Origin: Neocallimastix lanati (nom. inval.)
Taxonomy: Eukaryota > Neocallimastigomycota > Neocallimastigomycetes > Neocallimastigales > Neocallimastigaceae
Reading direction: 5' to 3'
Length of the DNA: 64,000 bases
Assembly: GCA_016946835.1 (NCBI GenBank)
Contig: JACVTC010000021.1
Coordinates: 659,501-723,500 of the forward strand
In this document: piece after piece, positions 5,662-43,900 of the stretch
Layout: every line of letters begins with the position of its first letter
Numbering within the stretch: the first letter of the stretch is position 1
Program-made: the position numbers and the translations under genes
Notes under the pieces: generated by a model
The model's input: the letters and a program-made list of their open reading frames with translations, nothing else
What the model was told of the DNA's origin: nothing
Database searches by the model: none

Positions 5662-6987
5662 ATGTTTGATGCAGCTAAATTGCAAAGAATCTTACCATTG
5701 TTAATCAATTATGGTAAAGATGTGGAAAGTTGGATAACAGATTTTTCCAAAACGATGGAACTTTATGATATAATGGAACCTCGACGCATTTTTACATGGG
5801 CTAAAGAGGCCGTGGAAGAAGATATTCAAGGCGCATTAAATTCATTAGTAAAAGGAAGAGGTGACTCAATCAGATATCCTACATTAAAGGAGATTCAAGA
5901 TACAATAGAAGAACATTTACATATAACTGAGTATGATAAATGTTCTGTTCTTAAATCTTTAAAAATTAATGAAGACGAGTCGTTAAAAAAGTTTAATTAC
6001 AAATATAAAAAATTATATAATAAACTCAGTTTGGAATATAGAAGACTTATTTCGGTCAAAGATTATACAAATGCTATTAGTTCTCGAGTATTTCCCTGTT
6101 CAAGAGTTATGATAGCGGAATGTGAAACAATAAATGAAGCATTTAAAATAGCTGAAGTAGCTGAAGAAGCTGAAAAAGAAATATCCAATGCAAATCAAAG
6201 GAGCAAAATTAATAATAATATGGGAACAAACATCATGTTTACTCAAAACCATACTAATAATAATGTATTATTGAATCACCCTTTTTACGAAAATCTTCAC
6301 TCAAGACAACTACCAATGAATCAAGATGGAAATAATACCTTTATTGGAGAAAACAATTGGAATTTTAGAGCTAGCTCATGGAACAATAATAACTCTAGGA
6401 AACCAAATTATTCGAATCATGCGGTAAATTTAAGAAATCATATGAATTATTATTCAAATAACAGTAATAATTACGTTAATAGAATGCCAAGAAGGAATTC
6501 AATAAATGGATATAATAATAAAATCAATTATGATAGGTATTCGAACAATAACAAAATCAACAATCATTATATGAATTTTAATATGATGAATAATACGAAC
6601 AAAATGAGTAATAATCAATTACTCAATGAAGGAGAAGATAACCAAAATAATATAGATTTAATAAATATAAATAATAATATGATGACTAATAATAATAAAG
6701 AATATAACAATCAAATGACTAATGGTAACACAATTAACACTAATAATATGACTCAATCTTTTAGCTACCAAAATAGGAAAAAATATCATAGTAGAACAGA
6801 AAACAACAATGTCATTAATACCTTAGTAACCAAAAATAATAATAAATTTAATGATGACAACAATTATCATGTGAATTGTTATCGTTGTACAATGGAGGGA
6901 CATAGAGCTTCAGAATGTCCGTACACATTTAAACAATTGGCTGAAATGGAAGAACAGGGTTTGATTAATAAACCTTTAAACCAATAA
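5662..6987 (+). CDS. gag: Element A gag (nucleocapsid) protein
   Basis: A 441-codon frame starting 160 bp after the 5' LTR. The first 170 residues are an ordinary mixed-charge region (WITDFSKTMELYDIM; EAVEEDIQGALNSLVKG) expected to form the capsid-like fold of Ty3 Gag. Residues from about 190 to 390 are dominated by Asn. A CCHC zinc knuckle, CYRCTMEGHRASEC, lies near residue 406 and would bind element RNA. It ends 41 bp before the pol frame, which is in a different frame. The ATG was chosen because it is the first one after the leader. Confidence 0.9.
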   Translation: MFDAAKLQRILPLLINYGKDVESWITDFSKTMELYDIMEPRRIFTWAKEAVEEDIQGALNSLVKGRGDSIRYPTLKEIQDTIEEHLHITEYDKCSVLKSLKINEDESLKKFNYKYKKLYNKLSLEYRRLISVKDYTNAISSRVFPCSRVMIAECETINEAFKIAEVAEEAEKEISNANQRSKINNNMGTNIMFTQNHTNNNVLLNHPFYENLHSRQLPMNQDGNNTFIGENNWNFRASSWNNNNSRKPNYSNHAVNLRNHMNYYSNNSNNYVNRMPRRNSINGYNNKINYDRYSNNNKINNHYMNFNMMNNTNKMSNNQLLNEGEDNQNNIDLININNNMMTNNNKEYNNQMTNGNTINTNNMTQSFSYQNRKKYHSRTENNNVINTLVTKNNNKFNDDNNYHVNCYRCTMEGHRASECPYTFKQLAEMEEQGLINKPLNQ

Positions 6988-7028: not shown

Positions 7029-10000
7029 ATGTTCAAAAATAATGACTCATGTAACAATAAAAATAATATAATGACAATGGTAGATGATCAAACAATACTA
7101 CCTATAATTAATAATAGTGTTAATGAAAAACAAAATTGTAATTACCTTAATATAAACAATAATAGTAATACTACACAAAATATATTAAATAGACCAATTG
7201 AAATTGTAGCAGCAGCTACTCGAAATTCAAGAAATAATATTAGCAAATATAATGAAAAGCCATATAATAGAAAGGAAGTGAGATTTAATTTAAAAGACAA
7301 TCCAAAACCAATACAAACGGCAGCTATGAGTCATAATAATATTAATAAGAATAATAATATTATTAATAATTATAATATTAAAAATAAAAATAATACCAAT
7401 TATAGTAATACAAATGTTAATAATAATTATAACAATATTAATAATCATAATAATAATAGGAATAATGATCATGAAAATAAAAATATGAATAATAATAATA
7501 ATAAAATTAATTATAATATAGATAATAATAATGACAATAATAACGACAATAATAATGAAGAAAATAATATTTATAATACCTTTAAAGAAAATATTGACAT
7601 AAATAATGATGATTATATTACTAATAATATAAACACTAGTCAAACAGTTGAATCAGGAAGTATAGAATCTAATGAAGATGTAATCATGATAGAAGAATCT
7701 GAAAATGATGAAAACAATGTTGATGTTGATGAAAGTAATAATATTAAAAATCATAATAAGTCCTTACCTGATAATGAAGAGAATTCCATTAGAGCAAATA
7801 ATACAAATAAGAATGAAACTCCTAATAAAAAAAATTGTAATACCCAAAAACTAGAGTATCTTGATCCTTCTTTTATCACAGAAAAAAATATTAGAAAAGT
7901 TAAAAACAAAAATAAAGAGGAGAGAATTAAAGATATAAAAAATAAAATGAAAGAAATGAATACCAATACCAAGACAAGTGAAACTCCAATGAAACAACCT
8001 GAAAAACACATCAAACTTATGGAGAAATTTGGTGATTATTATATTCAAGATTTGATAAAAGAAATTGCATCAACTGATGTAATAACAAAATTGGTCTACC
8101 TTTTAGATCTCTTCCCAAAATTTCGAACAGAATTCCTAAAAGCTTTAAAATTAACACCTAAACAAACAATAACAAATGTAATGACAGTTATTACAAAACA
8201 TAAAATAATTAAAGTTAATGGAAAAGTAGAGAATAATGATTGTGAAATATTTTTAGATACTTGCGCCAGTGTCAATGTTATTACACGTTCCGCTTTGAAT
8301 AAATTAAAAATCAACAAATCTTCTATTGGTAGAATCTCTGAAACAATATTTCAAGCGTACTCAAATTCCTCAATAGATAGTGATATCTATGATTTACAAG
8401 TCTCTATTGGTAGCAGAACTTTTAATGAATATTTTAGGGTAATCGAAAAAGATGATATTTTTGATATCTTGATTGGTGTTGATTCTCTAAAGAATAATAG
8501 ATTTGATATTAACTTAGTAGATGATACTTTATATTATATTGATGAAAATAATAATTACATTAAACTAGCAGATCTATTTTATGACATTAATCTTAATAAT
8601 ACTTACAAGGATGATGAAGAAATAGAAAAACATCAAACTACCAAATCTGAACCTTTCTTATTAACAATTACAGTTACCAATGATAAAGAAATTACGAATA
8701 CTAATGAATTACCTAACACGAAAGAACATTTAATTAATGAAATAATATCTTCTGTTCCTGATAATTTTAAAAATGAAATTAGTAAAATATTTTCAAAATT
8801 TAAAAATGTAATAGCAATCAAAACAGATGACTTAGGAAAATCAAAATTGTTACCTCATAAAATTGATTTAATTCCTCAGTCTACACCGATAAAATTAAAA
8901 GCTTACCGGTTATCTAAAGCACAAACAAAGGCTCTTAAGAAAATCTTGATTAAGCTAATAGAAAACAAATTAATAGAACCATCCTATTCTTCATGGGCAT
9001 TTCCAGTAGTACTAGTTCCGAAGAAAAACGGCGACTGGAGAATGTGTGTCGACTTTAGGGCTTTAAACAATATAACTATTAAGGATTCATATGCTTTACC
9101 CTTAATTGATGACATATTAATGTTTATTGGAAAGAACGCAAAAATACTCTCTACTATTGATCTTTTTTCTGGTTATCATCAGGTTCCAATGAATCCTGAT
9201 GATAAAGATAAAACAACATTCACTACCATGTTTGGAAACTACAAATTCTGTGTAATGCCGTTCGGTTTATGTAACGCACCGGCTACTTTTCAACGTGAAA
9301 TGAACCGGATTTTTTTTGATTTGATTGGTGTATGTTTGTTCGTTTACATTGATGATTTAGTTATATTTTCAGACTCTATTGAATCACACATTAAACATCT
9401 CACGATGGTATTTCAAATTTTAGCTGATAATGGTTTAAAGATAAATTTAGAGAAATGCTCATTTTTTAAAACAAAGGTAACACTACTCGGACACACTTTA
9501 TCGACACAAGGTATTTCACCCATTCCAGATAAGGTAAAAGTTATTGTGAATTGGCTCCCTCCGAAAAATATTACTCAATTAAAATCCTTCCTTGGAGCTA
9601 TTGGGTACTACCGAAAGTTTGTGAAAAATTTCGCACAAATTGCAAAACCACTTTTTAATTTATTAAAGAAAGATGTTCGTTATGTTTGGTCTAATGATTG
9701 TAATTATGCTTTCGAAAAATTAAAGAAAACATTAACAATGGCTCCCATTCTTGTTCCACCTGATTATTCTAAACCTTTTATTATTCGAACTGACGCTTCT
9801 AGAGATGGCTTGGGTGGAGTATTATTGCAGGTTAAAGAAAATTCTATAGAAGTTCCTATTTATTTCGAGAGTAGAACTCTTTCTTCTTCAGAATCTAACT
9901 ATAGTGTTACTGATTTAGAAGGCAAAGCAATATTTCATTGTGTTAAAAAATTTAAACCCTATTTTAGTGGAAGCTCCTTTCCTACTATTGTTTATACAGA

Positions 10001-11399
10001 CCATAAACCCCTGGTTAGTATATTTGCTAATAGAGAACCGTCAAATAATCGCCACCTTAAATGGGTTACAGAACTATCAATATTAAATGTTAAAGTTCAA
10101 TTTCAAGAGGGGAAGAGGAACGTTATTGCCGATGCTTTATCCAGATTACCTACAAAAGAAATAAATGAAAATAAAGAAATATTAAATGCATTAGTAAATA
10201 ATAACGTTTCTTCCAATAATAATAACGACAGTATAAATAAATTTATGAATGAATTTATAAATAAAAGAATTATAAATATTGATGGTATTGAATACTATAA
10301 GCAAGGAGAAAATATAAGGAAAATAATTAAGAATAAAACAAAACAGTTTGAATTAATCAAAGATGCACATCAAATTGGCCATGAAGGTATTTATAAAACA
10401 TACAATAGGTTAAAACGTGATTATTACTGGAAATCAATGAAGAATGATGTGCACAATTTTATTAAAAGCTGTCATCGCTGTCAAATATACAGACCTCAAT
10501 CGCTTAACAAAAATGTGGAAAGTATCGCTACACCTCCTGGTTATCCATTCTCTAGAGTTGGGTTAGATATCATTGGACCACTGCCACCTACAAGAAATAA
10601 TAATAAATATATAATCGTATTAGTAGATTATCTAACAAAGTGGGTAGAAGCGGAACCATTGAAAACGGTTGAAGCAGAAGATGTTATAAAATTTTTAAAA
10701 TCGGTATTTTCTCGTCATGGAATACCAGAAATACTTATTACAGATAATGGTCCACAATTCATCTCGGATAAAACCAAAGCTTTTCTTGACCTTCATGATA
10801 TATATGTACATTATATAACAACTTACCATCCAGCATCAAATGGAGAAGTAGAGAATCGAAATAAAGAGATAAGTAAATACCTACGATTACTTGGAAAATC
10901 TACCGATACTTGGGATGAAACTCTATACAGCGCTTTATGGGCTTTAAGAACCTGTAAGAATGAGGTTACAAAATATAGTAGCTTTGAATTATTATATGGA
11001 AGAAGAGACTTACAACCCTTTGAATTAACTTTAAATATAGAAAGAAGAAATGAAATGGAAAGTGAAGAAGAATATTGGTTAAGAAAATTTATTACTCACG
11101 ATAAATGGATCAAAGAAGCCATTAACAATATAGAAACAGCTAACAAATTATGGGAAGATCGTAGAAAACAAATTAAAAGATTGCGGGCTTGCTACAAACC
11201 TGGAGATTTAGTTTTAGTAAAAGTATTTAATAGACGGAAGTTGGATCCTTTTTTTACTGGACCGTTAAAAATTGTTAAACAAGAATTGAATACAGTCACA
11301 GTATGCGATCCAATTACAGGAGAAATAGCCAATCGTAATATTCATCTGAAAAACGTTATTCCTTACTTCACTGAAATAAATTTGGAAGAAGAAGAATAA
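7029..11399 (+). CDS. pol: Element A pol polyprotein: protease, RT, RNase H, integrase
   Basis: A 1,456-codon frame. The first 260 residues are an Asn-rich leader. A retropepsin-like region (DTCASVNVITRSAL) is near 407, reverse transcriptase near 640-830 (FPVVLVPKKNGDWRMCVDF; YIDDLVIF near 772), RNase H near 920 (RTDASRDGLGGVLL), integrase zinc finger near 1113 (HQIGHEG with CHRCQ), the integrase core near 1178-1275 (GLDIIGPLP, TDNGPQF, NGEVENRN), and a C-terminal GPF/Y-type module near 1384-1440 (LDPFFTGPLKIV). It lies in a different frame from gag with a 41-bp gap. Family members make Pol by frameshift, bypass or a separate start; which applies here cannot be seen. Confidence 0.93.
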   Translation: MFKNNDSCNNKNNIMTMVDDQTILPIINNSVNEKQNCNYLNINNNSNTTQNILNRPIEIVAAATRNSRNNISKYNEKPYNRKEVRFNLKDNPKPIQTAAMSHNNINKNNNIINNYNIKNKNNTNYSNTNVNNNYNNINNHNNNRNNDHENKNMNNNNNKINYNIDNNNDNNNDNNNEENNIYNTFKENIDINNDDYITNNINTSQTVESGSIESNEDVIMIEESENDENNVDVDESNNIKNHNKSLPDNEENSIRANNTNKNETPNKKNCNTQKLEYLDPSFITEKNIRKVKNKNKEERIKDIKNKMKEMNTNTKTSETPMKQPEKHIKLMEKFGDYYIQDLIKEIASTDVITKLVYLLDLFPKFRTEFLKALKLTPKQTITNVMTVITKHKIIKVNGKVENNDCEIFLDTCASVNVITRSALNKLKINKSSIGRISETIFQAYSNSSIDSDIYDLQVSIGSRTFNEYFRVIEKDDIFDILIGVDSLKNNRFDINLVDDTLYYIDENNNYIKLADLFYDINLNNTYKDDEEIEKHQTTKSEPFLLTITVTNDKEITNTNELPNTKEHLINEIISSVPDNFKNEISKIFSKFKNVIAIKTDDLGKSKLLPHKIDLIPQSTPIKLKAYRLSKAQTKALKKILIKLIENKLIEPSYSSWAFPVVLVPKKNGDWRMCVDFRALNNITIKDSYALPLIDDILMFIGKNAKILSTIDLFSGYHQVPMNPDDKDKTTFTTMFGNYKFCVMPFGLCNAPATFQREMNRIFFDLIGVCLFVYIDDLVIFSDSIESHIKHLTMVFQILADNGLKINLEKCSFFKTKVTLLGHTLSTQGISPIPDKVKVIVNWLPPKNITQLKSFLGAIGYYRKFVKNFAQIAKPLFNLLKKDVRYVWSNDCNYAFEKLKKTLTMAPILVPPDYSKPFIIRTDASRDGLGGVLLQVKENSIEVPIYFESRTLSSSESNYSVTDLEGKAIFHCVKKFKPYFSGSSFPTIVYTDHKPLVSIFANREPSNNRHLKWVTELSILNVKVQFQEGKRNVIADALSRLPTKEINENKEILNALVNNNVSSNNNNDSINKFMNEFINKRIINIDGIEYYKQGENIRKIIKNKTKQFELIKDAHQIGHEGIYKTYNRLKRDYYWKSMKNDVHNFIKSCHRCQIYRPQSLNKNVESIATPPGYPFSRVGLDIIGPLPPTRNNNKYIIVLVDYLTKWVEAEPLKTVEAEDVIKFLKSVFSRHGIPEILITDNGPQFISDKTKAFLDLHDIYVHYITTYHPASNGEVENRNKEISKYLRLLGKSTDTWDETLYSALWALRTCKNEVTKYSSFELLYGRRDLQPFELTLNIERRNEMESEEEYWLRKFITHDKWIKEAINNIETANKLWEDRRKQIKRLRACYKPGDLVLVKVFNRRKLDPFFTGPLKIVKQELNTVTVCDPITGEIANRNIHLKNVIPYFTEINLEEEE

Positions 11400-12972: not shown

Positions 12973-15900
12973 GTGAGTTTCGTTACAAATAAGAATAAAA
13001 TCTCTCCAAATAATAAAAGTATAGTTAAACCATCTATTCTCAATCAACCAAATATTAAGAAAGTTAAACAACAAAAGAAAGCAATTAGGAATACAAGAAG
13101 AAGAAAAATAAGTGAAGAACTTAATAATGAAAAACAAAATGACCATGAATTAAATGATAATGATGAAATTATTATTGATGAACCAAATAATACAAAGGAA
13201 AATACAAAAGATTCTGAAATGAAAAATAATTCAGAAATCAATAATGGAAATAATAATGAAAGTAATAATGAAAATAATAAGAATAATGTAATTAACATAA
13301 TTGATGAACATAGAAAAATAAATAATGAAAATAATACCAAAGACGTTCTAACACATAGTCAATCTCTCAGTCAAACTAAACAAACCAGAAAAAGAAGTAT
13401 GACAGATATACAAATGTTAGAACCAGGTAATAAGTTTAGTATAATTAAGGAAGCCAACAACTTGTTTCCGAAAATTAGTCTTGCACAATTACTTTCTATT
13501 AGTCCTACTCTTAGGAAGGAATTAGGACAAGGATGTAAGCCAAAAATAGATAATGTATTATGCTCTCTTTATAATATTCCTATTCCAATCTTTATTGGAA
13601 AAACGAAAGAAGTATTTTTAAAAATTCTTTACGATACAGGAGCAAATGTAAATGTTATAACAACAGGATGTTTAAATAAATTTAATGATGTGAAAATTGA
13701 AGAAGATATAATAGAACAAAATATTACTTTAGCAAATGGATCTACAGTACCTACTAAATACTATGTTCCATTGAAAATTAACATTAATGATTCTTGCAAC
13801 ATTTATGAAAAATTTTATATTATAAATCAAGATAATCCATACTTTGATATTATTTTTGGAAGAAGTATCCAAAAGAAATATAGATTACTTATTGATCCAG
13901 ATGATGATTTCATATATCAGAAAACAAGAAAAGGTCTTAAAAAGATAATCCAGATAATTAACTCAAATAATACAAATAATATTCCCTTAATGAATGCTAT
14001 TTATGTATCTAAAGAAGATGAAGAAATTCGTGAATTTAACTCTACCTTAAACGAAATTCTCAATTCTGTTCCAGATAAAGTTAAATCAAAATTTGAAAGT
14101 CTTATTAATCAATACAAAAATTGTATGGCAACATCACTAAGTCAGCTAACAACTGCTAACCTTGAACCACATTCAATAATTACTACTACTGAAAAACCTA
14201 TTAAGCTAAAACCTTATAAATTATCAAAAGAGCATTCTGATATTCTAAAAGAAGAAATTATATCCTTACTTAATAAAGGATTAATTATTCCCTCGCATTC
14301 CCCTTGGTCATTTCCTGTTTTATTAGTCAGAAAGAAAAATGGGAAATGGAGACTATGTATAGATTACAGAAGGCTTAATGAAATCACTATTAAAGATTCA
14401 TATGCACTTCCTTTCATCGATGAACTTGTCTCTTCAGTTAGAGGTGCTAAAATATTTTCAGCCCTTGACTTATATTCGGGTTATCACCAAATCCCAATGA
14501 ATCCCAGAGATATCGAAAAAACTTCTTTCACAACAAAATTTGGAAACTATAATTTTGTTGTTATGCCTTTCGGTTTAACTAATGCTCCAGCTACCTTTCA
14601 AAGGGAGATGAACAGAATCCTTTTATCCCTCATTGGTAAATGCTTATTCGTTTACATCGATGACATAGTTGTATATTCTACTTCTATTGAAGAACATCTT
14701 GAACATTTAAAACAAGTATTTGAAATATTCTCCAAGTATAATCTCTCCCTCAATCTTCAAAAATGCAAAATTTTCCAAGAATCAATTGAAGTCTTAGGTC
14801 ATGTTCTTACCCCTAATGGTTTAAAAACTGTTCCTTCTAAAGTTCAAAGTATAGCCCTTTGGGAAGCTCCCAAAAATGTTAATGAACTCAGGTCTTTCCT
14901 TGGTCTTGCTAGTTATTACAGAAAATTTATACAAAATTTCTCTATAAGAGCTGACTCTCTTTTTAAACTACTTAAGAAAAATCAACCATATATATGGACT
15001 TCTGATCGTAATGAAGCTTTTGAAGACATACGTCACTGTTTATTGTCTGACCCTATATTATGTTATCCTGACTTTGATAAAGAATTTATTGTTAGAACAG
15101 ACGCCTCTACTCAAGGTATCGGTGCTGTCCTCTTACTGGTGGAGGAAGACAAATTGGAACACCCAATTTGTTGTGTAAGTCGTACTTTATCACCTCCAGA
15201 AAGAAATTACTCTGTAACTGATCTTGAAGGTTTGGCTATTAATTACGCAATCCAAAAATTCCGTCAGTACTTAATTAGTAACAAGAAACCAACTATATTC
15301 ATTACGAATCATAAACCACTCTTAGGATTTTACAAAAATACTATTCCAAATAAAGGAAGACACATGCGTTGGATAGAAGAATTTAACAAATATAAAATTG
15401 AACTAAAATATGAAAAAGGAAAGAAAAATGTTTTCGCAGACGCTCTTTCAAGACTACCTTTAAAAGACAGCGAAGATATTATAAAATGTATTAATATAAT
15501 TTTAGCTGATTTTAATCCAAAAGATTTAAACCTACCAGAAGGAATAATCAAATACTTCACTAAGAATTATCAAGTTGTTGATAACACCTTATATTATAAG
15601 AAAGATGATACTTATTTAAAAGTTATCTACCGTGATGAAGACAAAAAGGATATAATTAATCGTGCTCATTCTGTAGGACATGAAGGAGCCGAAAAAACTG
15701 TAAACAGAATACGAAATTCATATTATTGGCCCGGCATTTGGAATGACGTTAGGATGTGGATCAAATCTTACAGAAAATATCAACTTTGTAGACCAAAACC
15801 AAACCCAAAAAACACTGCAGATAATGTAACACCAGTTGAACAACCATTTACTCGTGTTGGACTTGATACGATTGGTCCTCTTCCAATTACTAAAAATGGA

Positions 15901-16716
15901 AATATGTATATTATTACATTGGTTGACTACTTCACAAAATGGGTTGAAGCTAAAGCCATTCCAAACACAAAGTCTGAAGAAGTTATAAAATTTTTAACTG
16001 AAGTTATATCAAGACATGGTCCTCCAGAAATAATTGTTACAGATAACGGAAGTTCGTTCGCATCAGATATTACTAAAATGATGATCGATCTTTATGGGTC
16101 ATGGGTGCACTTTGTATCTCCACATCATCCAGAATCAAATGGTATAATTGAAAACCGTAATAGAGAAGTAGAGAAAATTCTAAGACTCTTAGTTGAAAAC
16201 GAAAGTGATTGGGATGAATATTTACCATCCGCACTTTGGGCTCTTAGAACAACAAAAAATTCCAAAACAAAATTTAGCAGTTTTCAATTACTTTATGGGA
16301 GAAAAGACACCTGGCCATTAGAAGTAATGTTTCCAGATATTTACAAAGATCCAAATGAAACAGATGAAGAATATATTTTTAGAAGATTCCTAAGACATCA
16401 GAATTGGGTGAAACAAGCAACAGAATATTCGGATTACGCAAATCAATATTGGGAACATCGCATTGGACTATCGAAATCACTAAAGAAAAATTATAAACCC
16501 GGAGATTATGTGATGATAAGACTAATTGGAAGAAGTAAGTTAAATCCTTACTTTTATGGACCATATAAAGTAGTTAACAAACAAAAATTCAATACAGTTG
16601 TCCTCGAAGATCCTCAAACAGGAAAGCTTCTTGATCGAAATGTACATATTAAAAATGTTTTTCCTTATATCATTCCAGAAAAAGAATTAACTTCAAGGGA
16701 CGAAGTTCAATCTTAA
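12973..16716 (+). CDS. pol: Element B1 pol polyprotein: protease, RT, RNase H, integrase
   Basis: An open frame of about 1,247 codons that begins directly after element A's 3' LTR. There is no ATG at the left edge; the frame is simply open there. Residues 1-140 are Lys/Asn-rich. Then come retropepsin (LYDTGANVNVI, near 219), RT (FPVLLVRKKNGKWRLCIDYR; YIDDIVVY near 561), RNase H (RTDASTQGIGAVLL near 708), the integrase zinc-finger region (HSVGHEGAEKT near 898), the catalytic core (GLDTIGPLP, TDNGSSF, NGIIENRN) and a GPY/F module (NPYFYGPYKVV near 1190). It is clearly diverged from A but the same architecture. Two other copies of this family lie at 28.9-36.2 kb. Confidence 0.9.
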   Translation: MSFVTNKNKISPNNKSIVKPSILNQPNIKKVKQQKKAIRNTRRRKISEELNNEKQNDHELNDNDEIIIDEPNNTKENTKDSEMKNNSEINNGNNNESNNENNKNNVINIIDEHRKINNENNTKDVLTHSQSLSQTKQTRKRSMTDIQMLEPGNKFSIIKEANNLFPKISLAQLLSISPTLRKELGQGCKPKIDNVLCSLYNIPIPIFIGKTKEVFLKILYDTGANVNVITTGCLNKFNDVKIEEDIIEQNITLANGSTVPTKYYVPLKININDSCNIYEKFYIINQDNPYFDIIFGRSIQKKYRLLIDPDDDFIYQKTRKGLKKIIQIINSNNTNNIPLMNAIYVSKEDEEIREFNSTLNEILNSVPDKVKSKFESLINQYKNCMATSLSQLTTANLEPHSIITTTEKPIKLKPYKLSKEHSDILKEEIISLLNKGLIIPSHSPWSFPVLLVRKKNGKWRLCIDYRRLNEITIKDSYALPFIDELVSSVRGAKIFSALDLYSGYHQIPMNPRDIEKTSFTTKFGNYNFVVMPFGLTNAPATFQREMNRILLSLIGKCLFVYIDDIVVYSTSIEEHLEHLKQVFEIFSKYNLSLNLQKCKIFQESIEVLGHVLTPNGLKTVPSKVQSIALWEAPKNVNELRSFLGLASYYRKFIQNFSIRADSLFKLLKKNQPYIWTSDRNEAFEDIRHCLLSDPILCYPDFDKEFIVRTDASTQGIGAVLLLVEEDKLEHPICCVSRTLSPPERNYSVTDLEGLAINYAIQKFRQYLISNKKPTIFITNHKPLLGFYKNTIPNKGRHMRWIEEFNKYKIELKYEKGKKNVFADALSRLPLKDSEDIIKCINIILADFNPKDLNLPEGIIKYFTKNYQVVDNTLYYKKDDTYLKVIYRDEDKKDIINRAHSVGHEGAEKTVNRIRNSYYWPGIWNDVRMWIKSYRKYQLCRPKPNPKNTADNVTPVEQPFTRVGLDTIGPLPITKNGNMYIITLVDYFTKWVEAKAIPNTKSEEVIKFLTEVISRHGPPEIIVTDNGSSFASDITKMMIDLYGSWVHFVSPHHPESNGIIENRNREVEKILRLLVENESDWDEYLPSALWALRTTKNSKTKFSSFQLLYGRKDTWPLEVMFPDIYKDPNETDEEYIFRRFLRHQNWVKQATEYSDYANQYWEHRIGLSKSLKKNYKPGDYVMIRLIGRSKLNPYFYGPYKVVNKQKFNTVVLEDPQTGKLLDRNVHIKNVFPYIIPEKELTSRDEVQS

Positions 16717-17529: not shown

Positions 17530-19226
17530 CTACAACTTAATAATAATTAAATAATAATTATTATTAAATTGAGAAAGCAAAAAAGGATAAATATACTTAT
17601 CTTTTATAAGAAAGAGTTTATTATAACTAATTATAATAAACTAATAACACAGAATTGTCAAGAGAAAGGATTATTTTATTTTGTTTTATTTTTAAATTTG
17701 TTTTATTAAAACTTATTTTATTAAAATAGAAATATAAAATATTTATTAATGTTATTACTATATTATAATTATTATAATAATAACTCTTGATTTCTCAAAG
17801 AGAATTCAAGAGCCTTATTTATACTTTTTTGAAAAATAAGGTTAAATTAAAAAATGTTTTCTAATCTTAACAAATCTCTTATCTAGGAAAAGATTAGAGA
17901 GAAAAACCTAGATAAGATTTTTGATCGATATTCTATCCATATCGATCATCGTATCAATTAGGTAAAACCAATTACTTTTAAGAAGTAATTGGGAAAAACC
18001 CTAATTAACCGATTCGTTAATCTAATGTAATTGATCGAAAATAAAAGAATAAAATAATAAAAGATATTTCGATCATAAAATTATAAATTTACAAATAAGG
18101 AAAATAACATAATGACATTAATAAACAAAATACAGAATACATTATTAAAATACATATTAAAATACATAATACATTTGTTTACAATTTAATTAAATAAATA
18201 AACTAAAACTAATAAATTTAATAATTAAATGTATAATTAAATAAACTATAAATATTAATAAATGTATAAATAATAATTAATTAAATAAATTTGTTGTATT
18301 AAATTAATGAATATTTAATATGGAGTTAAATAAATTATTAATAATATTTAAATGAATAAATATTATATAATTAAATAAAGTTATAATAACTTTAACTAAG
18401 AAAATATAATTATTTTATTTAAAAATAATTATATTTTCTTAGTTAAGTTATTATAACTATAACTTTATTTAATTACATATAATATTTATTAAATTTATTT
18501 AATTTAATTTTAAATATTCATTAATTTAACAAAATTTATTTAATTAATTTTGAATAATATATTTACAATATGTTAAATTCTCTACTGTAACTAATGTATT
18601 CTGTATTGTATTGCATTCTGTATTTTATAATGTATTTTGTATTTTATAATGTATTCTGTATTTTATTAACTATTTAATTTTATATTTTTAATATAAGGAT
18701 AAATTATATGATCGAAATATCTTTATTATTTTATTCTTTTATTTTCGATCATTAGATTAGATTGGAAAATCGGCTAATTAAGATTTTTTCCAATTACTTT
18801 TTAGAAGTAATCGGTTTTACTTAATTAATGAGATGATCGATATGGATAGAATATCGATCGAAAACATATCTAGGTTTTTCTATCTAATCTTTTCCTAAAT
18901 AAGAGATTTGTTAAGATTAGAAAACCCTTTCTTATTTAACCTTATTTTCATAAAAAAATATAAGGCTCTTGAGTTCTCTTTGAGAAATCAAGAGTTATTA
19001 TTATAAAAACATAGTTATAATAGTAACAATTTTATATTTTTAACTTTAATAAATTAATAAAATATTTTATTCAAAAAACATATTTTAAAATCAAATTTAT
19101 ACAAACAATTCTTCTCTTACTTCTCGTGTTATTATTATAATTAATTTTATAATAAACTCTAAAGGTAAAAAAAAAATTTATCTTATTTTATTTTCTCAAC
19201 TTAATGAATTAGTCGTTAAGTTGTAG
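17530..19226. repeat. Long imperfect inverted repeat (palindrome) of about 1.7 kb
   Basis: The left arm (17530 to about 18415) reappears in reverse complement in the right arm (about 18422 to 19226). Landmarks: AACTCTTGATTTCTCAAAGA near 17782 pairs with TCTTTGAGAAATCAAGAGTT near 18980; GATCGATATTCTATCC near 17922 pairs with GGATAGAATATCGATC near 18845; CTACAACTTAA at 17530 pairs with TTAAGTTGTAG at 19226. The arms differ by several substitutions and small indels, and the centre (AACTAAGAAAATATAATTAT...) is tightly palindromic. No coding frame is seen. It could be a foldback element or an inverted duplication of an LTR-like segment. Confidence 0.8.
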
Positions 19227-19325
19227 TCAATAATTCTATTTTGAGTTAGTTCTTAATAGAATTATTACATTTTGATACGGGGTGTCACTAAATACCTTGT
19301 ATTTCCTATTAAATACTCTTAATAA

Positions 19326-20325
19326 TAGTAAAATAAAATTATTATTAAATATTCTTATTAAAATCTTTTATTAATATTAAATATAATAAAAATTATTACT
19401 AAATATTCTTATAAATTTCTTTTATTAATATTAAATATAATAAAAATTATTATTAAATATTCTTATAAATTTCTTTTATTAATATTAAATATAATTATAA
19501 TTATTATTAAATATTCTTATAAAATTCTTTTATTAATATTAAATATAATAAAAATTATTATTAAATATTCTTATTAAAATCTTTTATAATAAAAATTATT
19601 ATTAAATATTCTTATAAATTTCTTTTATTAATATTAAATATAATAAAAATTATTACTAAATATTCTTATAAATTTCTTTTATTAATATTAAATATAATAA
19701 AAATTATTATTAAATATTCTTATAAATTTCTTTTATTAATATTAAATATAATTATAATTATTATTAAATATTCTTATAAAATTCTTTTATTAATATTAAA
19801 TATAATAAAAATTATTATTAAATATTCTTATTAAAATCTTTTATAATAAAAATTATTATTAAATATTCTTATAAATTTCTTTTATTAATATTAAATATAA
19901 TAAAAATTATTATTAAATATTCTTATTAAAATCTTTTATTAATATCAAATATAATAAAAATTATTATTAAATATTCTTATAAATTTCTTTTATTAATATT
20001 AAATATAATAAAAATTATTATTAAATATTCTTATTAAAATCTTTTATTAATATCAAATATAATAAAAATTATTATTAAATATTCTAATAAAAATCTTTTA
20101 TTAATATTAAATATAATAAAAATTATTATTAAATATTCTTATTAAATATTCTTTTATTAATATCAAATCTAATAAAAATTATTATTAAATATTCTTATTA
20201 AAATCATTTATTAATATCAAATATAATAAAAATTATTATTAAATATTCTAATAAAAATCATTTATTAATATCAAATATAATAAAAATTATTATTAAATAT
20301 TCTAATAAAAATCTTTTATTAATAT
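19326..20325. repeat. Satellite-like tandem array of a 54-bp unit
   Basis: About 18 copies of a 54-bp unit beginning TATTAAATATAATAAAAATT. Many copies differ slightly, and one variant is about 10-15 bp shorter. Variant copies recur in the same order at a spacing of about 257 bp (for example the ATTACTAAATATTC variant near 19395 and again near 19652), so part of the array was amplified as a higher-order block. There are no spacers, so it is not a CRISPR array. Confidence 0.9.
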
Positions 20326-21118
20326 AAAACATAATAATAAAATAATATTGATAAGAATCTTTTAATAAAATAACTATATAAATTATTTATAAAACAATTT
20401 AATAATAAAACTTATTTAATAATAAAATATAAAATAAAATAAAATATTATAACTAATTAAAAATTCTCTTTCGGAAATCTTTAGAATGATAAAGAATTCC
20501 TTAGAATCTTTTAGAAATAATTGAATAAACTATATAATAATAAAATATATAAAACTTATAAAACTTATTTAAAATATTATAAAACTATTACTAATAACTA
20601 ATTCTGTATTTTTAATTAATAATACAAATTAATAATATAATTTCCAAGTTAAGAGATTTATCTAATATAAATTTCTTAATTAATAATTTAGGGTCTTAAT
20701 TAAATAATTAAATTATAATTTTTATATTTAAATATCTTTAAAGTCCAATATCTCGTTATCTAGTTGTCCAATAAGGTTGATTTTAACATATGTTGTAGTT
20801 CTCGTCCTTAGCTTTCTACTGAATATAATTTTAGCGGGAAATCACAATATAATATTTCCATTATTTGTTGAGTTATCGTTGTTTTTCTTCATGTTATTTT
20901 TATCAAATTCTTAAGGGTTAAATTAAATTATCTGTAATAAATAAGTCCAAACCCTTTGGTTTCTAATTCTTTAATGTTTCTAATATTTATTTTTATAATT
21001 AAAATCGAATTAAAATAATTTTTGTTAATAACTAAATTAAATTTCAATTGATCTAATAGTGAATTTTAACTTCAAATCCACTAATATTCGTGACAATTAT
21101 TAATAATATTTTATACAA
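20326..21118. other. AT-rich stretch with no recognised gene
   Basis: Lies between the satellite and the CRESS element. It contains mildly more balanced sequence near 20690-20960 but no frame or motif that could be assigned. Part of it may belong to the viral insertion. Confidence 0.5.
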
Positions 21119-21136
21119 ATAAAGGTTATTAATTCA

Positions 21137-22124
21137 TTATTTACCAATATCATGGATGCTAAAGTGGTTCAGTGATATGAAGATATTAAACAATATCTTT
21201 TAAGTTTGAAAAACTTTCAATATCTTTTGGTAACTGAACACATTGGACAGGATAATAAACATTATCATGCTTATGTTCAGTATTCTAAGCCTGCTTATTT
21301 ATCTTATAGAAAACTACACGGTGCCCATGTAGATAAATGTTTTGGGTCTGCTCAGCAAAACATTAGATATCTTAAATGTGAAGATGATAAACATAAAATC
21401 TCTTGGAATTACTTATGAATAATTGATGAAGAAGGTGATCCTTTACTTAAAGGTGGTAATTATACTGTTGGTTATTTAGAATCTTTAGAAGATCCTTATG
21501 AATTACCTGCTATTCATTACAATATTTATAATAAAATACAAAATAAGAAGAGTGATGAAGCCTTCTATAATATGTTAGACTCTATTCAAGAAGACGCTTT
21601 AAGACCTATTGAAGTAATTTATTTTATTGGTAAACCTGGTAGTGGAAAAACTTAATGCTTATAAGTATGCTCTTGCTCATTTTGATAAAAAGGAAATTAC
21701 TAAAGTTACAATTTGTAATAATTTCTTTGAATTTGTTGGTTCTTGTGAAGATAAATGTTTAGTTGTTGAAGAATTTAGACCTTCTCAATTACATCCATCT
21801 AGCCTTCTTCAATTTACTGATAAATATGGTTATTCTTGTCCAATTAAAGGTGGTCATAAATATGTTAAACCGGAAATGATTATTATTTGTTCTATTATTC
21901 ATCCTTCTCGTTTATATAGAGAAGAGAAAGAAGAACTCAATGAACAATTTACTAGAAGAATTACTCATTTATATGAAGTTAATAGTAATCATAGTTATTA
22001 TGAAATACACTTAAACCAAGTTTGTATTGGTGGTTATCCCATTGGTTATCGTACTGACTTTAATCAACTCGAAGAGTATGAAGTCACCGATAATTGGGAT
22101 GGTACACGTACAATTATTAATTAG
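21137..22124 (+). pseudogene. rep: CRESS replication-associated protein (Rep), fossil
   Basis: The N-terminal part shows HUH rolling-circle endonuclease features: a possible motif I (LFTNI) near 21140, motif II HYHAYVQ near 21262, and motif III YLKCEDDKH with the nicking tyrosine near 21369. The C-terminal part shows superfamily 3 helicase signatures: Walker A GKPGSGKT near 21630, a Walker B-like LVVEEF near 21760, motif C-like MIIICS near 21879, and an arginine-finger-like FTRRIT near 21950. The order nuclease-helicase and the total of about 320 residues match Reps of the circovirus type. In a living virus it nicks the origin and unwinds DNA during rolling-circle replication. It is broken here (about two or three breaks). 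Confidence 0.8.
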
Positions 22125-22206
22125 AATAGTTATTTTATTTTTATTTATAAAAAAGAAATACATGTAATTAATAATTAATTAAATAAAAAATAAATAAAAA
22201 TTAAAA

Positions 22207-22926
22207 TTAAGTATTTGCATTTCCTTGTGCATTACTAGATGATGCACCTGTTCCTTGTGTTTCATTATTTGAAGTGTCTTGATCAACTTCCATTGCTGAT
22301 TTAATAGAAGTTTTAGTTGGTACTTCGAGTTTTTTAGCTTGGTCAGCTGTTGGTGTAAATAGATCAGTATCAGTTTTAAATTGATAAGTAAACTTTTGAT
22401 CCATTGCACACCATCTACAATCAAATTGCTCCCTAAACATTAATTTACCTGTTAAATTAACTACTTGATTGTGGTTAGCTGCACCTGATGCGCTAGTACC
22501 TGTTATACTACCCCATACCTTAAATAAACAACCACTTGTTATATCTTTTAAACCTATATTTCTAGTATTTGATGCTGTCACTGGATTACCTGATGCAAAC
22601 GCATTTAAACTTTTAGCATATCTATAACCCCAATACCCTCTATTTATTAATGCTTTTGGTTTATGTACAAATTTATGTGTCATACTAGCACCTGGTTGTA
22701 ATCTAAAAGTATGTTTTTTAACAATTTTACAATAGATATTAAATGGGTATGATTCTGTAGGTTTAAGTGATATATCATCTATTGTTTTTTGGTTAGGGTC
22801 TGATACTAGTGTCATATTTGCACTTGTATTAAGTGGATCTGAAGCACCTGTTGTTTGATTTAAACCTGCTTTAATTAATGCTAACGGAGTATGTCTGCTT
22901 ATACTATTACACTGGTTGTCACTGTA
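22207..22926 (-). CDS. cap: Capsid-like protein of the CRESS fossil
   Basis: An open minus-strand frame converging on Rep. From the ATG at 22815 it encodes 202 residues; the frame stays open upstream to about 22926 (HTPLALIKAGLNQTTG...), so the true start may lie there. The middle has alternating hydrophobic and polar segments with KKHTFRLQPGASMTHKFVHK and INRGYWGYRYAKS, the sort of pattern seen in single-jelly-roll CRESS capsids. The C-terminus is a disordered Asn/Ser/Gln tail. Assignment rests mainly on its position opposite Rep and its size, plus a general resemblance. A chance host frame is unlikely at this codon usage. Confidence 0.6.
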   Translation of the reverse strand, partial: YSDNQCNSISRHTPLALIKAGLNQTTGASDPLNTSANMTLVSDPNQKTIDDISLKPTESYPFNIYCKIVKKHTFRLQPGASMTHKFVHKPKALINRGYWGYRYAKSLNAFASGNPVTASNTRNIGLKDITSGCLFKVWGSITGTSASGAANHNQVVNLTGKLMFREQFDCRWCAMDQKFTYQFKTDTDLFTPTADQAKKLEVPTKTSIKSAMEVDQDTSNNETQGTGASSSNAQGNANT

Positions 22927-22935
22927 TCGAATATT

Positions 22936-23435
22936 GCTTTATATTTTTTAAAATAATATTTATAATAAAATAAATAAATGATTAAATAATTAATATATAG
23001 ATAAATTTATATTTTAATTATATGAATGCTAAATAATAACTTAAATAAATCTTAATTGAATAAATATTAATTAAATTATGAATAAGTAAATGGATATATA
23101 TAAATTAATAGATAAATTATATTTTAATAATTAAATATATTTTTTATTTTAAATTATATAACCAATCATGTAATATTTAGAATAGATTTTTGAATATAAA
23201 ACTCTATATATTATTTTATTTTGACTCTGGGTCGATATTAATATTCAATCAATAATAAAAATAAAGTTTTATAATTAAATACCTTGTCAATTAATATTTA
23301 ATTTTCTTTTATTTATTGATTCCTATAACAACATAGTGATTATAGTACCCAGTTCGTTACAGATACTTTTTTTTTCGAAGAGCAATATGGGTTATGAATA
23401 GTCTTGGAATGAGCAATTGTGTCTTCTTCTGAGAA
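22936..23435. other. AT-rich stretch with no recognised gene
   Basis: AT-rich to about 23330, then a more balanced segment leading into the coding scrap at 23436. No motif recognised. Confidence 0.5.
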
Positions 23436-37030: not shown

Positions 37031-40000
37031 AATATTAATTACTACAAAGAATCACAATCCAAATTACAAAAAGAAAGATTAATTGAGAAATCAATAAATT
37101 CAGTAATATAGTTGATAAAAATATAAATATTGGAGAAAATAAATTAGGAATTAAGTATGATAGGAACAGAATATTGTCTGAAATTGATTATAAAACTATA
37201 GATAGAGATTCGAATAACTTAGTAGATGCTATTGATAAGTTGATAGATAAAATAGACGCAATAGATAAAAGTAAATTGTCAGAAATTGAGATGAATGAAT
37301 TAACAACAATATATTATAATTTAAAGGAGTTATATTATATCAATCAAGAAGAAAAAATATTTGAAGTTCCTTTAAATAATGAAATAGTAAATAATTTATA
37401 TAATTCAATTGGATCTAAACTAGGTTTAATTGAAAATAAAGAATATGTTGAATTGAAACCAGAAAATAGTATCTTAAAAATTCCAGATTTAGAACATTTT
37501 GAATCAGATGAAAAAACTATAACAGATGTTATTATAGATAAAAATATTCCCTTGGAAAATAAAAAATATATTATAAAAACATTAGAAAACAATATAAATG
37601 CCAATATTGAAAATTCAATAGATTCAGGAACAATCTTTAAAGCAGGACAGTTATGTAGGAATCCAAATAGTAGAGCAAATAAGCGTAGTTTAGATTGTGA
37701 ACCCAATACATCTAATTTAATTGATATTACATTTGATGAAATAGCATTGTTAATATTATCAGCAGGTAATATGGATGGTAGCATGAGTAAAGCTATGGAT
37801 GAGAATGGTGATTTAGTTCCAATTATTATAAATGTTATGGATAATGGAGAAGAAAGACAATTAAGTATCAAAGACATTATTCCAAGTTCGAGAAATTTAG
37901 AAGGTGAAAAATTTGAAGCAAAGTTTAATACAATATTTACATTGGCACAAATTGGGTATTTGGAACATTTCAGAAATCTAATAGATGAAGAAGGAAATAT
38001 TGATATTTCTGGATATTGATACAATTTTTATTTGACGTTATTAATGATAATGAAAATGAATTAAATGATATTGATATTAATGATCTTGATTTTAATAAAT
38101 TACCATCCGATATTAAAAATAAATGGAGATACAGTAATATATATGATGAGAATGAAAATGAAAATGAGTTTAATAAATATAACACCTTGTTTAAAATCAT
38201 TGTTATACATTGTAACAAATCTCCTAGTTGTAAGGAACAATTTATGGATAATAATAAATTCAATAGGAAAGACATATTGTTTAATATCATATCATTTAAA
38301 GATAATGACGATAATGGTAATTCAATTACTAATAATGCTTTTATTATAAATAATGAGATTAAACAAGCAATACATGCATTTACCCTAAATGAAATTGATA
38401 ATAATAAATATGAAATTAATGATAAGTATCCATCGAATCAAATGAGTTATTCACTTATGAATTTGTTAAATATTAATGGTAATTTAATAAATAATAATTT
38501 TGAATATGATGCTCAATATATTATTAAAGCAGGTATAGAATTATTAGCTGAATGTGAAATAAAACTTCAATTTCTTGATGGAACTATTTTAAATCCTGAG
38601 GATTATAATTTAAGTATTAATGATGTTGAAGAAGATACTATTATTGAAGATAAATATGGAGTAAAATTAGATAGTAAGTTTACTCTCAATGTTGTTGATG
38701 CGAAAATTCTTTTTGTTAAATTAGCAGAAACCAAAAATAATATTATTTATAGTGAAACTTATATATAATGAAGCACTTGAAATTTATAGTAAAAAAAATG
38801 AAGGTGATGTAACAAAAAAATTAATTAAATCTGATATAGAAACTGGATCAAAATATGTTAATGATGAATTACGTTATACAATAAGCTATTTTGTAAATAT
38901 GATTAATAAAGATAATGTAGCAATTGATAATGATTCTTTAAACTTTGATTTTGACAAAGGAGTTGCTGAATATCATGGAAATAGAAATTTAGATTTAGAT
39001 GTAATTATAGAATCATTTAATGGAATAGAAATTGATGAAACAGATACTACAACCAAAAAATATTTATTAAATATTCATAATAGACTTAAAAAAATAGAAG
39101 AGAGTTTTGATCGAGAGAATATTGATGAAGATTATAAAAATAATTCAGAAATGGTTTATAAATTAATGGATTCTTTAATTACAAAATTTGAAAATGTTTA
39201 CAAAGACAGTGATGCAAATATAAAAAGAATAGTTATAAATATTAGAAATAGTAATAAAAATATTAATAAAAGTAGCATAAAATCTAAAAACTAATTAAAT
39301 ATAGATCATATAATTAATAATGTAAATTATATGAAAGATTTTATTTTAAATAACCCAGAAAATATTTATGTTAAAGAATATTTTGATAATTTGAAATATA
39401 AAATTTTTAATGATGTTAATGATGATGAGAATAAGAATTTACCAGATTCAATTTTAAACGAAATTAATGATTTAAAATTAAAGATTAATGATAAGATAGA
39501 AAATTTCAACCAGTAAAGTTCTCCTGAAGGTCATATTGAGGAAGGTATTCATATTATTGATTTAATTAATAATTATAATGAAGTATGTTATACTGCTATT
39601 GATACGTATAACGATGGTTTTGAAGCTGAAATTATTTCTATAAATGATGAATTAAAGAATCGAGTTAATTACTTAAGATTAAAATTATTCTATGATAGAA
39701 TGAATAAAATTATGAGTAACAATCCTCAATTATTTAAATTAGATAATGGTGCTAATTTAGAATAATACATTAATCCTGATGGAATTATTATTTTGGTAGT
39801 AATAAAATAACTGAATCTACAACAGAAGAATTAAGAACAATTATAAATCAAGCTTAAATTCTAAGAGTGATGCTGTATTTATATTTACGGACGAAGATAC
39901 TAATAAATATCAATTAATAGAATTAAAACGTAGTTTATGATATCAATATAAATTAGTAGCATATGAGCCAGCGTTTATTAGAGATCCTAATGAAATTACA

Positions 40001-40964: not shown

Positions 40965-43900
40965 TTGTTAATTATAATATTTTTATCTTATACTATTAGC
41001 AAATCTTTTAATAGTACAATTAATGATGAAAATATCTTTTGTCTTTATAGTAAAAATAAAGTAATCAAAACAGTTGATCCTTTTTATTTAGATTCAACTA
41101 ATAAAACTATTTATTTTGATAGAATTGAAGATTATGCTAGATACATTGGTCAAATGTGGATTGGGGTTTCTAATTGTAAAAACGTTGTATTAGTTAATAG
41201 TGTAGGAGAATATTATAAAATTAAACCTATTAAAAAAAGATTAATTAGTAACAAAAACGATAATAATGACACTAATTATAACACAAATAGCCAAATAGAA
41301 AAAAATGATATTGATGATAATATTGTTAAACTGTTCAATACAACTAATGCTGATGATGATAATATTCTTAAAGATCGTACTATAACAGATTATAAAAAAT
41401 ATTACTATAATATTTATAAAAAGTTTATAAAAAATGGATTAAAATGTCTTGCATTAACAAGTAAAAATCCAGCATATAATCCATATCATCCAGCATTAAT
41501 TCAAGTTAGTAATAAAAATGATAAACCAGCTAACATAATTCAAGTTATGGGTATTTCATATGATGAAAATTATCAAAAGTATTTAAAGACATTAAAAGAA
41601 GCTAATGAAAATAAAAGTACAAAAGATAAATATGTTGAATGTGGTACAGTTAGAAATATGACTTCGTGTTCATCTGTTACATGTACTGTGACTTATTCTA
41701 CAGATATTCAAGACAGTATTAGTATTACAGATAGTAATGGAAATTCATATCATAAATCTTATGGTAAAGTTACAAGTAACGGTGATACATATACTGATGA
41801 AATAAATAATCAAATTGAATTAATTTCTAGTATATCTAATTCAGTATCCAATTCTGTTACAGATTCTAATGGTACTTCAAATGCATATGAACGTGTATAT
41901 ACTATTATAGATGGTCAAAGTAATTCTAATACCAATAATTATGAAGTAACACATACGGATACATCTGAAGTAACATTTACTCATACAGAATCTGAAGAAC
42001 ATACTCATACTACAACAAAGGGTGGTGAACATGTAGAAGAACATATCTGGAGTGATAGTGATGAAACTTCACATACAGAAGTATATTCAAGAATGAATGA
42101 AGAATCATATAATAAACATAAAAATGAATTTATAGATCTTAATGATAAAGATTATAAAGTTTCTGATCCTAATGAAAGATTAAAAGAAAAACAAAAAAGA
42201 AAAGTTAGTGCTACTGTAACAAAAAACCAGTCAGGTAGATCTGCTTATACACAAGCAACAGGAGAAAGTGCTATTAGTGCTGTTGGTGGATGTGGAACTG
42301 GAGCTCTTATTGGTACTATGCTTTATCCTGGTGTAGGCACTGCCGCTGGTTGTGTAATTGGTGGTTTACTTGGAGCAGCAGCAGGTGTAATCAATATAAA
42401 CAAACTGAAATTGCAGATGAGGCTAATGAAATTGCTAAAAAAGCTAATGAGCATGCAAAAGACGCTAACGATATTGTTAAAGCTACTTATTTACAGGAAG
42501 CTGAAATTTCTAATCGAGATGCGTCATTACAAATTGCTCTTAGTAATGCAGATTTTAATAATCAAAGAATAATTGCTATAATTGGCTCTAAATTTACTTC
42601 TGATACAACAAGTCATACTCATACTAGTGGTGGTAGTATTAGTGATTCTACAAATTGGTCTGATTCTCAAGCTGATACATCTGGATTTAGCAATGCATGG
42701 GGAACATCTAATGGATATTCCGATGCTTATACACGTGGTTACTCAGAAACATCATCTATAGAACATTCCGAATCTGATTCCATTTCGAAAATGATTACTA
42801 AAAACTTTAATAAGGAAACTGGATGGATTAATCAAGATACAACTACAGATACTACTAGTAATGGATATACATTTGGTTCATCTACTCAAAAATCTTATTC
42901 TACTAATTTATCTTACGATGAAGCATTAGATATTTCAGCTCAATATACATTACAAAAATCATACACATTATCTCAGGGTAAAATAGAATCATGACAAGTT
43001 ACTTTTGTAATTCCTGACGGACTTTGTTATAATTTATCTGTTTTACCTATGTTTGAAGTAGAAATTATTATCCAAACATGTGGTAACTATAATGAAGAAA
43101 TTGGTTATACATATATTACATATTAATGAGTTATTCGCCCTATTAAATTTTTAGGATTTAGTGAGATACCTATTTCTTGTAATCAAAATAAGAATGATGT
43201 TGATATTATAAATAATGATTCAGAAAATTTTGATTACATAAAGATCGATTCTAATGATTCAATTGATACTTTAAGATCAGGTAGTTACTTATCACCTGGT
43301 AATATCATAGTTTCGAAAAACAAAAAAATTTAGTTTTGGTATATTAAATACTGGTGAATTAATCTTATGTGAAGGTCCTAATATATCTTCAAAATCCACT
43401 TACCATTGGATTTTATTACAAAATACTGGAAATATTGTTGTTAAAAAAAATATTAGAACAGCATGGTCTTCATCTACTGCTAATATTTCTATTTACGAAG
43501 CTCCTTATAGAATTACATTTTCTCCATTTGGTGAATTAATATTAAGAGATAAAAATAATTATATAGTATGCCAAATTTTTAATTCATTATCTATTAATAA
43601 TTACAGTGATATTCCAAATAATAAAAAATTTAAACTATTAATATCTGATTAAGGTGAATTATATAGTGAAAATGAAAAAAACTTATGTATTATTGGAGTA
43701 ACTGGCATGATGTTAGATTATATACAGATCATGTAAGATATATTGAACCTGTAATATACGAAGTTAGTTCATGCAATGAACATCTAAGAGTTAAAAATAC
43801 GTATAATTTATTTTCTAAACCTGATATATACAATTTTAATCAAATAAAAAATGATCCTAAAACTTATCATAAGAATTTTTATTTTAATAATTTATTACCT

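What the first reader, a model, noticed from the sequence alone, without database searches (positions are those of the whole stretch)
21119..22935. Fossil circular Rep-encoding ssDNA virus, with capsid-like gene, in a fungus-like genome
Seen: HUH nuclease and SF3 helicase motifs (HYHAYVQ, YLKCEDDKH, GKPGSGKT, MIIICS) on the plus strand, and a convergent capsid-like frame on the minus strand, in a 1.8-kb unit. Known: this convergent layout is typical of circovirus-like CRESS viruses; most endogenous cases keep only Rep. Inference: a nearly full-length genome was captured, so this lineage, perhaps an anaerobic gut fungus, may host or have hosted CRESS viruses.
Basis: partly seen in the sequence, partly recalled or inferred. 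Interest (0 to 1): 0.88.

Follow-up and report, generated by a model that had tools for sequence, protein, structure and literature searches.

The report
Fossil DNA virus in gut fungus
A piece of a small circular DNA virus, carrying most of its replication gene and half of its shell gene, is built into the chromosome of an anaerobic gut fungus, and related pieces elsewhere in the genome suggest that such viruses have infected these fungi repeatedly.

Summary
In detail: a Rep-like region (HUH and SF3 motifs, plus strand) and an open capsid frame (minus strand) converge here. The viral insert is 21,179-22,894 (1,716 bp). It splits a low-copy host repeat; its joined flanks match four virus-free copies elsewhere in the genome, so it is integrated, without target-site duplication. 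Rep lacks motif I and is damaged in at least two places; Cap is only the C-terminal half of a ~400-426-aa capsid. That is roughly 60% of an estimated 2.9-kb circle, so 'nearly full-length' is too strong. Capsid relatives have basic N-termini and a jelly-roll model resembling CRESS capsids. Rep falls in a clade with 39 relatives, two of them Piromyces sp. E2 proteins; 17 lie on 2.5-3.1 kb contigs. Eight other partial loci lie in this genome, one with Rep and Cap head to head, as a circular source predicts. The host is an anaerobic gut fungus by dockerins and composition. Ten paper searches listed no CRESS virus from this phylum; an endogenous DNA virus is known from a chytrid. New lineage and host phylum, known kind of element.

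The parts
21179..22894 (.). endogenous viral insert, 1,716 bp, a contiguous fragment of a Rep/Cap genome
   Evidence: Rep and Cap homology runs to both ends (21179 and 22893); host repeat on both sides matches empty paralogous copies
21179..21652 (+). Rep piece 1: HUH endonuclease domain (motif I missing) to Walker A; stop at 21416-21418
   Evidence: tblastn residues 33-190 of P0048, 76.6% identity; stop-to-stop frames
21260..21280 (+). HUH motif II, HYHAYVQ
   Evidence: translation; both His columns invariant in the clade A alignment
21368..21394 (+). motif III region with candidate catalytic Tyr, YLKCEDDKH
   Evidence: translation; Tyr column invariant in the clade A alignment
21629..21652 (+). 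SF3 Walker A, GKPGSGKT; frame breaks immediately after
21654..22124 (+). Rep piece 2: rest of SF3 helicase and C-terminus, uninterrupted
   Evidence: tblastn residues 192-347 of P0048, 84.6%; 89.7% to P0055
21753..21776 (+). Walker B region, KCLVVEEF
21876..21893 (+). motif C region, MIIICS
22125..22206 (.). 82-bp spacer between the convergent 3' ends of Rep and Cap
   Evidence: ORF ends
22207..22894 (-). Cap, C-terminal half (residues 229-425 of P0002), open; basic arm and first strands absent
21158..21178 (+). left half of the interrupted host repeat
   Evidence: matches four empty copies on C434, C187, C160, C752; the 20-base head is found at 6 places including this one at <=1 mismatch, control 0
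22895..23373 (.). right half of the interrupted host repeat
   Evidence: 78.8-81.6% identity to the same four copies
20322..21094 (.). upstream high-copy host element; the copies compared end here and run into different flanks
   Evidence: 39 other scored copies of 451 candidates at 94-97% for 20700-21120; extent and end from 7 copies

Best explanation
The insert is a fossil, truncated copy of a circular Rep-encoding ssDNA (CRESS) virus of a lineage that infects, or infected, anaerobic gut fungi. The source virus is inferred to have been a circle of about 2.8-3.0 kb carrying a ~340-aa Rep and a ~400-426-aa jelly-roll capsid in opposite directions, replicated by Rep nicking and rolling circle. 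Viral DNA that lacked the origin-side segment (Cap N-terminus, intergenic region, Rep N-terminus) was joined into a break in a low-copy host repeat, probably by end joining since there is no target-site duplication, and then began to decay. Shown: Rep and Cap homology, insert limits, empty sites, frame damage, eight further partial loci in the same genome, one with the opposite permutation. Inferred: the circle, its size, the rolling-circle mechanism, end joining, and that the fungus itself was the host.
Confidence: 0.93

Rival explanations
1. The virus belongs to another gut organism (ciliate, amoeba, animal) and its DNA entered fungal chromosomes by accident; the fungus was never a replicating host.
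For: Integration alone does not prove productive infection; the sister-set Reps (clade B) have unknown hosts, one being named after a pheasant (P0133).
Against: Nine loci in one genome, beside different relatives in the Rep tree, and gene models in Piromyces sp. E2 mean repeated entry over time into one group of fungi. Insert GC is 28.8%, close to the 26-29% coding GC tabulated for these fungi (PMC12341934, passages).
Confidence: 0.15
2. Assembly chimera or contamination: free viral DNA from the gut was joined to fungal contigs.
For: Raw reads are not available here.
Against: The insert splits a host repeat whose four other compared copies are uninterrupted; it sits about 681 kb into a 1.70-Mb contig; eight further loci are on seven other contigs and once more on this one; Rep is damaged.
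Confidence: 0.02
3. The Rep comes from a plasmid or a rolling-circle transposon and the minus-strand frame is unrelated to a capsid.
For: HUH Reps also occur in plasmids; a high-copy host element ends 84 bp to the left.
Against: 1 of 72,556 plasmid records matches, at 23.5% identity; no relative confirmed in prokaryote genome contigs; Cap relatives have basic N-termini and a capsid-like model; Rep and Cap models are consecutively numbered in Piromyces.
Confidence: 0.02
4. The Cap half has been kept by the fungus for a function (domesticated, for example interfering with capsid assembly or feeding RNA interference).
For: Cap has no stop over 229 codons while Rep is damaged in at least two places.
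Against: With two or three lesions spread over about 1.6 kb of coding DNA, none falling in the Cap part is expected about one time in three to five (my estimate, not a call); no expression data; the N-terminal arm and early strands are missing.
Confidence: 0.05

Closest known systems
CRESS viruses and endogenous elements of Entamoeba and Giardia (Naryaviridae, Nenyaviridae, Vilyaviridae; Kinsella et al. 2020, PMC7493932, passages read)
   Same: Small circular ssDNA viruses of gut eukaryotes whose host was inferred partly from insertions in host genomes; low GC in Naryaviridae; Naryaviridae capsids average 179 or 439 aa there, about 400-426 aa here.
   [quoted passage not shown] Vilyaviridae average 59% GC, the insert is 28.8%. 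Sequence kinship not tested: their proteins were not at hand.
BdDV-1, endogenous DNA virus of the chytrid Batrachochytrium dendrobatidis (Clemons et al. 2024; cited in PMC11115238, passages read; that it is CRESS-like is recalled, the paper itself is not held)
   Same: A DNA virus integrated in the genome of a zoosporic fungus.
   Different: Other fungal phylum; sequence not at hand, so kinship untested. It is found in some isolates and is reported to reduce growth and raise virulence; here partial copies lie at nine loci and no phenotype is known.
Unnamed clade B gut CRESS viruses (P0116 'Cressdnaviricota sp.', P0133 'Syrmaticus ellioti CRESS-DNA-virus sp.')
   Same: Labelled viral Reps among the 120 listed matches; sister set in the Rep tree.
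   Different: Rep about 300 aa on ~2.0-kb contigs (13 of 15 rows at 1.8-2.5 kb) against about 335 aa on ~2.9-kb contigs.
Circoviridae
   Different: Capsid ~400-426 aa; no circovirus-type origin recognised; no significant sequence match of the capsid to a solved structure.
BFVD entry A0A4D6TZF0 (no name at hand)
   Same: Best structural match of the capsid model, E 2.4e-36, 32% identity, 459 aa.
   Different: Source virus and host unknown to me.

Membership tests
Cressdnaviricota (CRESS DNA viruses) | Rep with HUH endonuclease plus SF3 helicase | tested here: met
   Motif II, motif III region, Walker A and B and motif C regions present in the insert; motif I absent by truncation but present in relatives; profile match to CRESS Rep structures
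Cressdnaviricota (CRESS DNA viruses) | jelly-roll capsid with basic N-terminus | tested here: met
   In relatives only: model of P0002 matches CRESS capsids and has an Arg/Lys-rich arm; the window's own copy has lost the arm and first strands
Cressdnaviricota (CRESS DNA viruses) | circular genome | tested here: inconclusive
   Opposite permutations at two loci and a 2.5-3.1 kb contig mode fit a circle; no closed contig seen
Cressdnaviricota (CRESS DNA viruses) | origin stem-loop with nonanucleotide | tested here: inconclusive
   Origin side missing in the window; C744 stretches fold no better than shuffles
Circoviridae | Rep groups with circovirus and cyclovirus Reps | not tested
Circoviridae | small capsid and ~2-kb genome (recalled) | tested here: not met
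   Full-length capsid relatives are 395-426 aa; clade A contigs are most often 2.5-3.1 kb, 17 of 39
Genomoviridae (fungal CRESS viruses) | geminivirus-type Rep catalytic domain (PF00799, recalled) | tested here: not met
   0 of 2 clade A proteins scanned with a nuclease domain, P0024 and P0025, match PF00799 at E<=1, while P0025 passes Viral_Rep PF02407; clade B P0026 matches PF00799 at E 0.052, below cut-off
Naryaviridae / Nenyaviridae | sense Rep and Cap frames (PMC7493932) | tested here: not met
   Rep + and Cap - in the window, opposite directions also at C744
Vilyaviridae | Rep kinship and high GC (59% average, PMC7493932) | tested here: inconclusive
   Insert GC 28.8%, but decay in an AT-rich host lowers GC; Rep kinship not tested
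Endogenous viral element | integrated in host chromosome, empty site known | tested here: met
   Four empty paralogous sites; raw reads not seen
Host in Neocallimastigomycota | fungal dockerins and AT-rich large genome | tested here: met
   150 of 150 scored candidates match PF02013 above cut-off, 1,440 candidates in all, 0 of 14 control genomes; 199 Mb; window GC 21.6%, against 16-22% reported (PMC12341934, passages)

The most novel reading that the evidence does not exclude
Anaerobic gut fungi are natural hosts of a still circulating, unnamed, family-level lineage of CRESS DNA viruses (about 2.9-kb genomes, ~340-aa Rep, ~400-426-aa capsid) in herbivore guts, and their genomes hold an archive of repeated captures, including one from a virus whose Rep joined this lineage's nuclease domain to a foreign helicase (C15).
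Probability: 0.7. Interest if true: 0.72.

Novelty: new member of a known kind. Interest (0 to 1): 0.62.

Why it matters
It ties a set of unassigned Rep and capsid sequences to a host group. Anaerobic fungi are main fibre degraders in herbivores; the mycoviruses that I found described from them are RNA viruses (PMC7482067, passages). A capsid gene beside Rep, with a mapped empty site, is stronger evidence for a true virus than a Rep-only insertion. The question whether DNA viruses infect and affect gut fungi becomes testable with cultures and existing metagenomes.

Tried and rejected
Three IMG/VR scans and one scan of prokaryote genome contigs confirmed no relative. Pfam gave nothing for the window's Cap or for 5 of 5 relatives scanned; PHROGs gave only chance-level matches for it (best E 0.031 for P0018); PDB sequence searches gave one match at E 1.3 and none. 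Origin stem-loop: three 121-base stretches folded no better than shuffles (z -0.48, 0.36, -1.11). I first took the stop at 21,173 as Rep damage; the empty-site comparison shows that it is host sequence. I first read a contiguity between window 18397-19269 and the right flank on C434 as one larger insertion; the base-level view showed a host repeat of its own there, so I dropped that. The host repeat's head resembles a tRNA A-box from memory, but ARAGORN reports no tRNA in the four copies and Rfam none in the two searched. The phage and plasmid collections gave only distant Reps: 5 of 50,697 records (bajarodino viruses, 23.7-25.9%) and 1 of 72,556. The Rep could not be placed among named CRESS families, because no labelled references were at hand. 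Sister fungal genomes could not be searched; Piromyces appears through protein records only. A search of the genome with the nearest capsid, P0002, did not complete, so Cap loci may be missed.

Full report
What is there. The longest stop-free run inside the insert is 228 codons; 500 dinucleotide shuffles never exceeded 124.

Limits of the insert. The right flank from 22,895 matches four other places in the genome at 78.8-81.6% identity. Those four places carry, directly before it, a 20-base sequence that in the window lies at 21,158-21,177 (with one mismatch), on the far side of the viral DNA. Joining the window's two flanks (21,120-21,178 and 22,895-23,060) gives a sequence that aligns with all four copies, without a gap at the junction in three of four and with small gaps a few bases to the right in the fourth. 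So 21,179-22,894, 1,716 bp, was inserted into one copy of a low-copy host repeat without a target-site duplication. The 20-base head occurs at six places, the window included, at up to one mismatch, the reversed control at none. Viral homology runs to the same limits: Rep from 21,179, Cap to 22,893. A high-copy element (39 other scored copies of 451 candidates, 94-97%) ends about 84 bp to the left.

Rep. Piece 1 (21,182-21,652) matches residues 33-190 of P0048 at 76.6%, piece 2 (21,654-22,121) residues 192-347 at 84.6%, and up to 89.7% to P0055. Motif I, at residues 19-24 of P0048, is outside the insert. There is a stop at 21,416-21,418, around which the frame by eye seems to slip out and back, and the frame changes after Walker A. 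By themselves the window pieces give only weak PDB matches (9pqj E 0.0023 for piece 2; 2hwt E 0.04 for part of piece 1). A profile of the relatives finds CRESS Rep structures, best 9pqq at 1.1e-10, a redondovirus Rep (PMC12981564, passages). The Rep profile search gave 602 proteins at E<=1e-6 of 4,376 candidates, 120 listed. Of the 120 I put 55 in a tree, 39 of one kind (clade A) and 16 of another (clade B), with six pieces from five loci of this genome. Clade A with all six pieces is parted from clade B at SH-aLRT 100, in a quick tree without bootstraps; pieces of different loci sit beside different relatives, but the two window pieces do not fall together, piece 2 being unresolved. Two pieces, from C124 at 1.03 Mb and C412, are sisters and may share one origin.

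Other copies. Searches of the genome with P0048, P0063, P0008, P0026 and two of the window's own pieces give nine loci including the window: C124 at 1.03 Mb, C412, C15, C744, C224, C335, C699 for Rep, C112 and C744 for Cap. C335 and C699 rest on weak matches (E about 4e-6 to 6e-5). The longest Cap pieces at C744 and C112 carry 11 stops each. C744 has Cap on minus and Rep on plus, head to head, the opposite permutation of the window. C15 has a 286-codon open frame whose first half is 68.5% identical to P0039 over 143 residues and whose second half is a different SF3-like domain (PF00910, E 0.0024, below cut-off), with altered HUH and Walker A residues by eye.

Host. The genome has 199 Mb in 762 contigs and 150 of 150 scored dockerin candidates above cut-off, of 1,440 candidates, none in 14 control genomes. 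PMC12341934 (passages) reports 16-22% GC and tabulates 234-632 dockerin proteins for anaerobic fungi, and 187-201 Mb for three Neocallimastix. I therefore place the host in Neocallimastigomycota, probably near Neocallimastix.

Mechanism and confidence. The missing Cap N-terminus, intergenic region and Rep N-terminus would be one contiguous arc of a circle, so a single linear fragment was probably captured. That the ends were joined by the host's break repair is inferred from the absence of a duplication. Extant viruses are inferred from intact long relatives on 2.5-3.1 kb contigs, 17 of 39 clade A Rep rows and 10 of 17 Cap rows; I could not see those contigs.

Prior work. Ten paper searches, each listing at most 20 papers, listed no report of a CRESS virus in this phylum; the library lacks most subscription papers. 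A survey of early-diverging fungi reports RNA viruses there (PMC7482067, passages). An endogenous DNA virus of a chytrid, BdDV-1, is known (PMC11115238, passages).

Noticed in passing
L027 4093-4953 minus (G000:C15): Open 286-codon Rep-like frame joining a clade A nuclease half to a different SF3-like half, with altered HUH and Walker A residues: a recombinant Rep, changed in its active sites but not in its frame.
   Followed up: partly
window 19335-20349 and 20322-21094: Minisatellite with 54-bp unit (108- and 257-bp higher periods) next to a high-copy element that ends ...GTGACA; a TGTCAC occurs near 19,282, so the two may be ends of one transposon.
   Followed up: partly
window 7029-11399 and 12973-16716: Two long open reverse transcriptase/RNase H/integrase polyproteins, Ty3/gypsy-like in domain order, the first preceded by a gag-like frame at 5662-6987 without Pfam match.
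   Followed up: no
C160:87673, C187:25872, C434:514574, C752:68332 (G000): Low-copy repeat with a conserved 20-base head that looks like a tRNA A-box from memory but is not called a tRNA by ARAGORN or Rfam; it is the kind of site into which the virus inserted.
   Followed up: partly
proteins P0022 and P0025, both on a contig of 8,982 bases: Rep split in two gene models, possibly on one metagenomic contig: perhaps a further endogenous copy in another fungus.
   Followed up: no
window 37174-39294 and 40965-44945: Series of long plus-strand frames; the two tested have no Pfam match. Possibly secreted or surface fungal proteins.
   Followed up: no
L028 7598-7672 (G000:C744): ARAGORN calls a tRNA with an undetermined anticodon about 2.3 kb from the C744 viral locus.
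   Followed up: no
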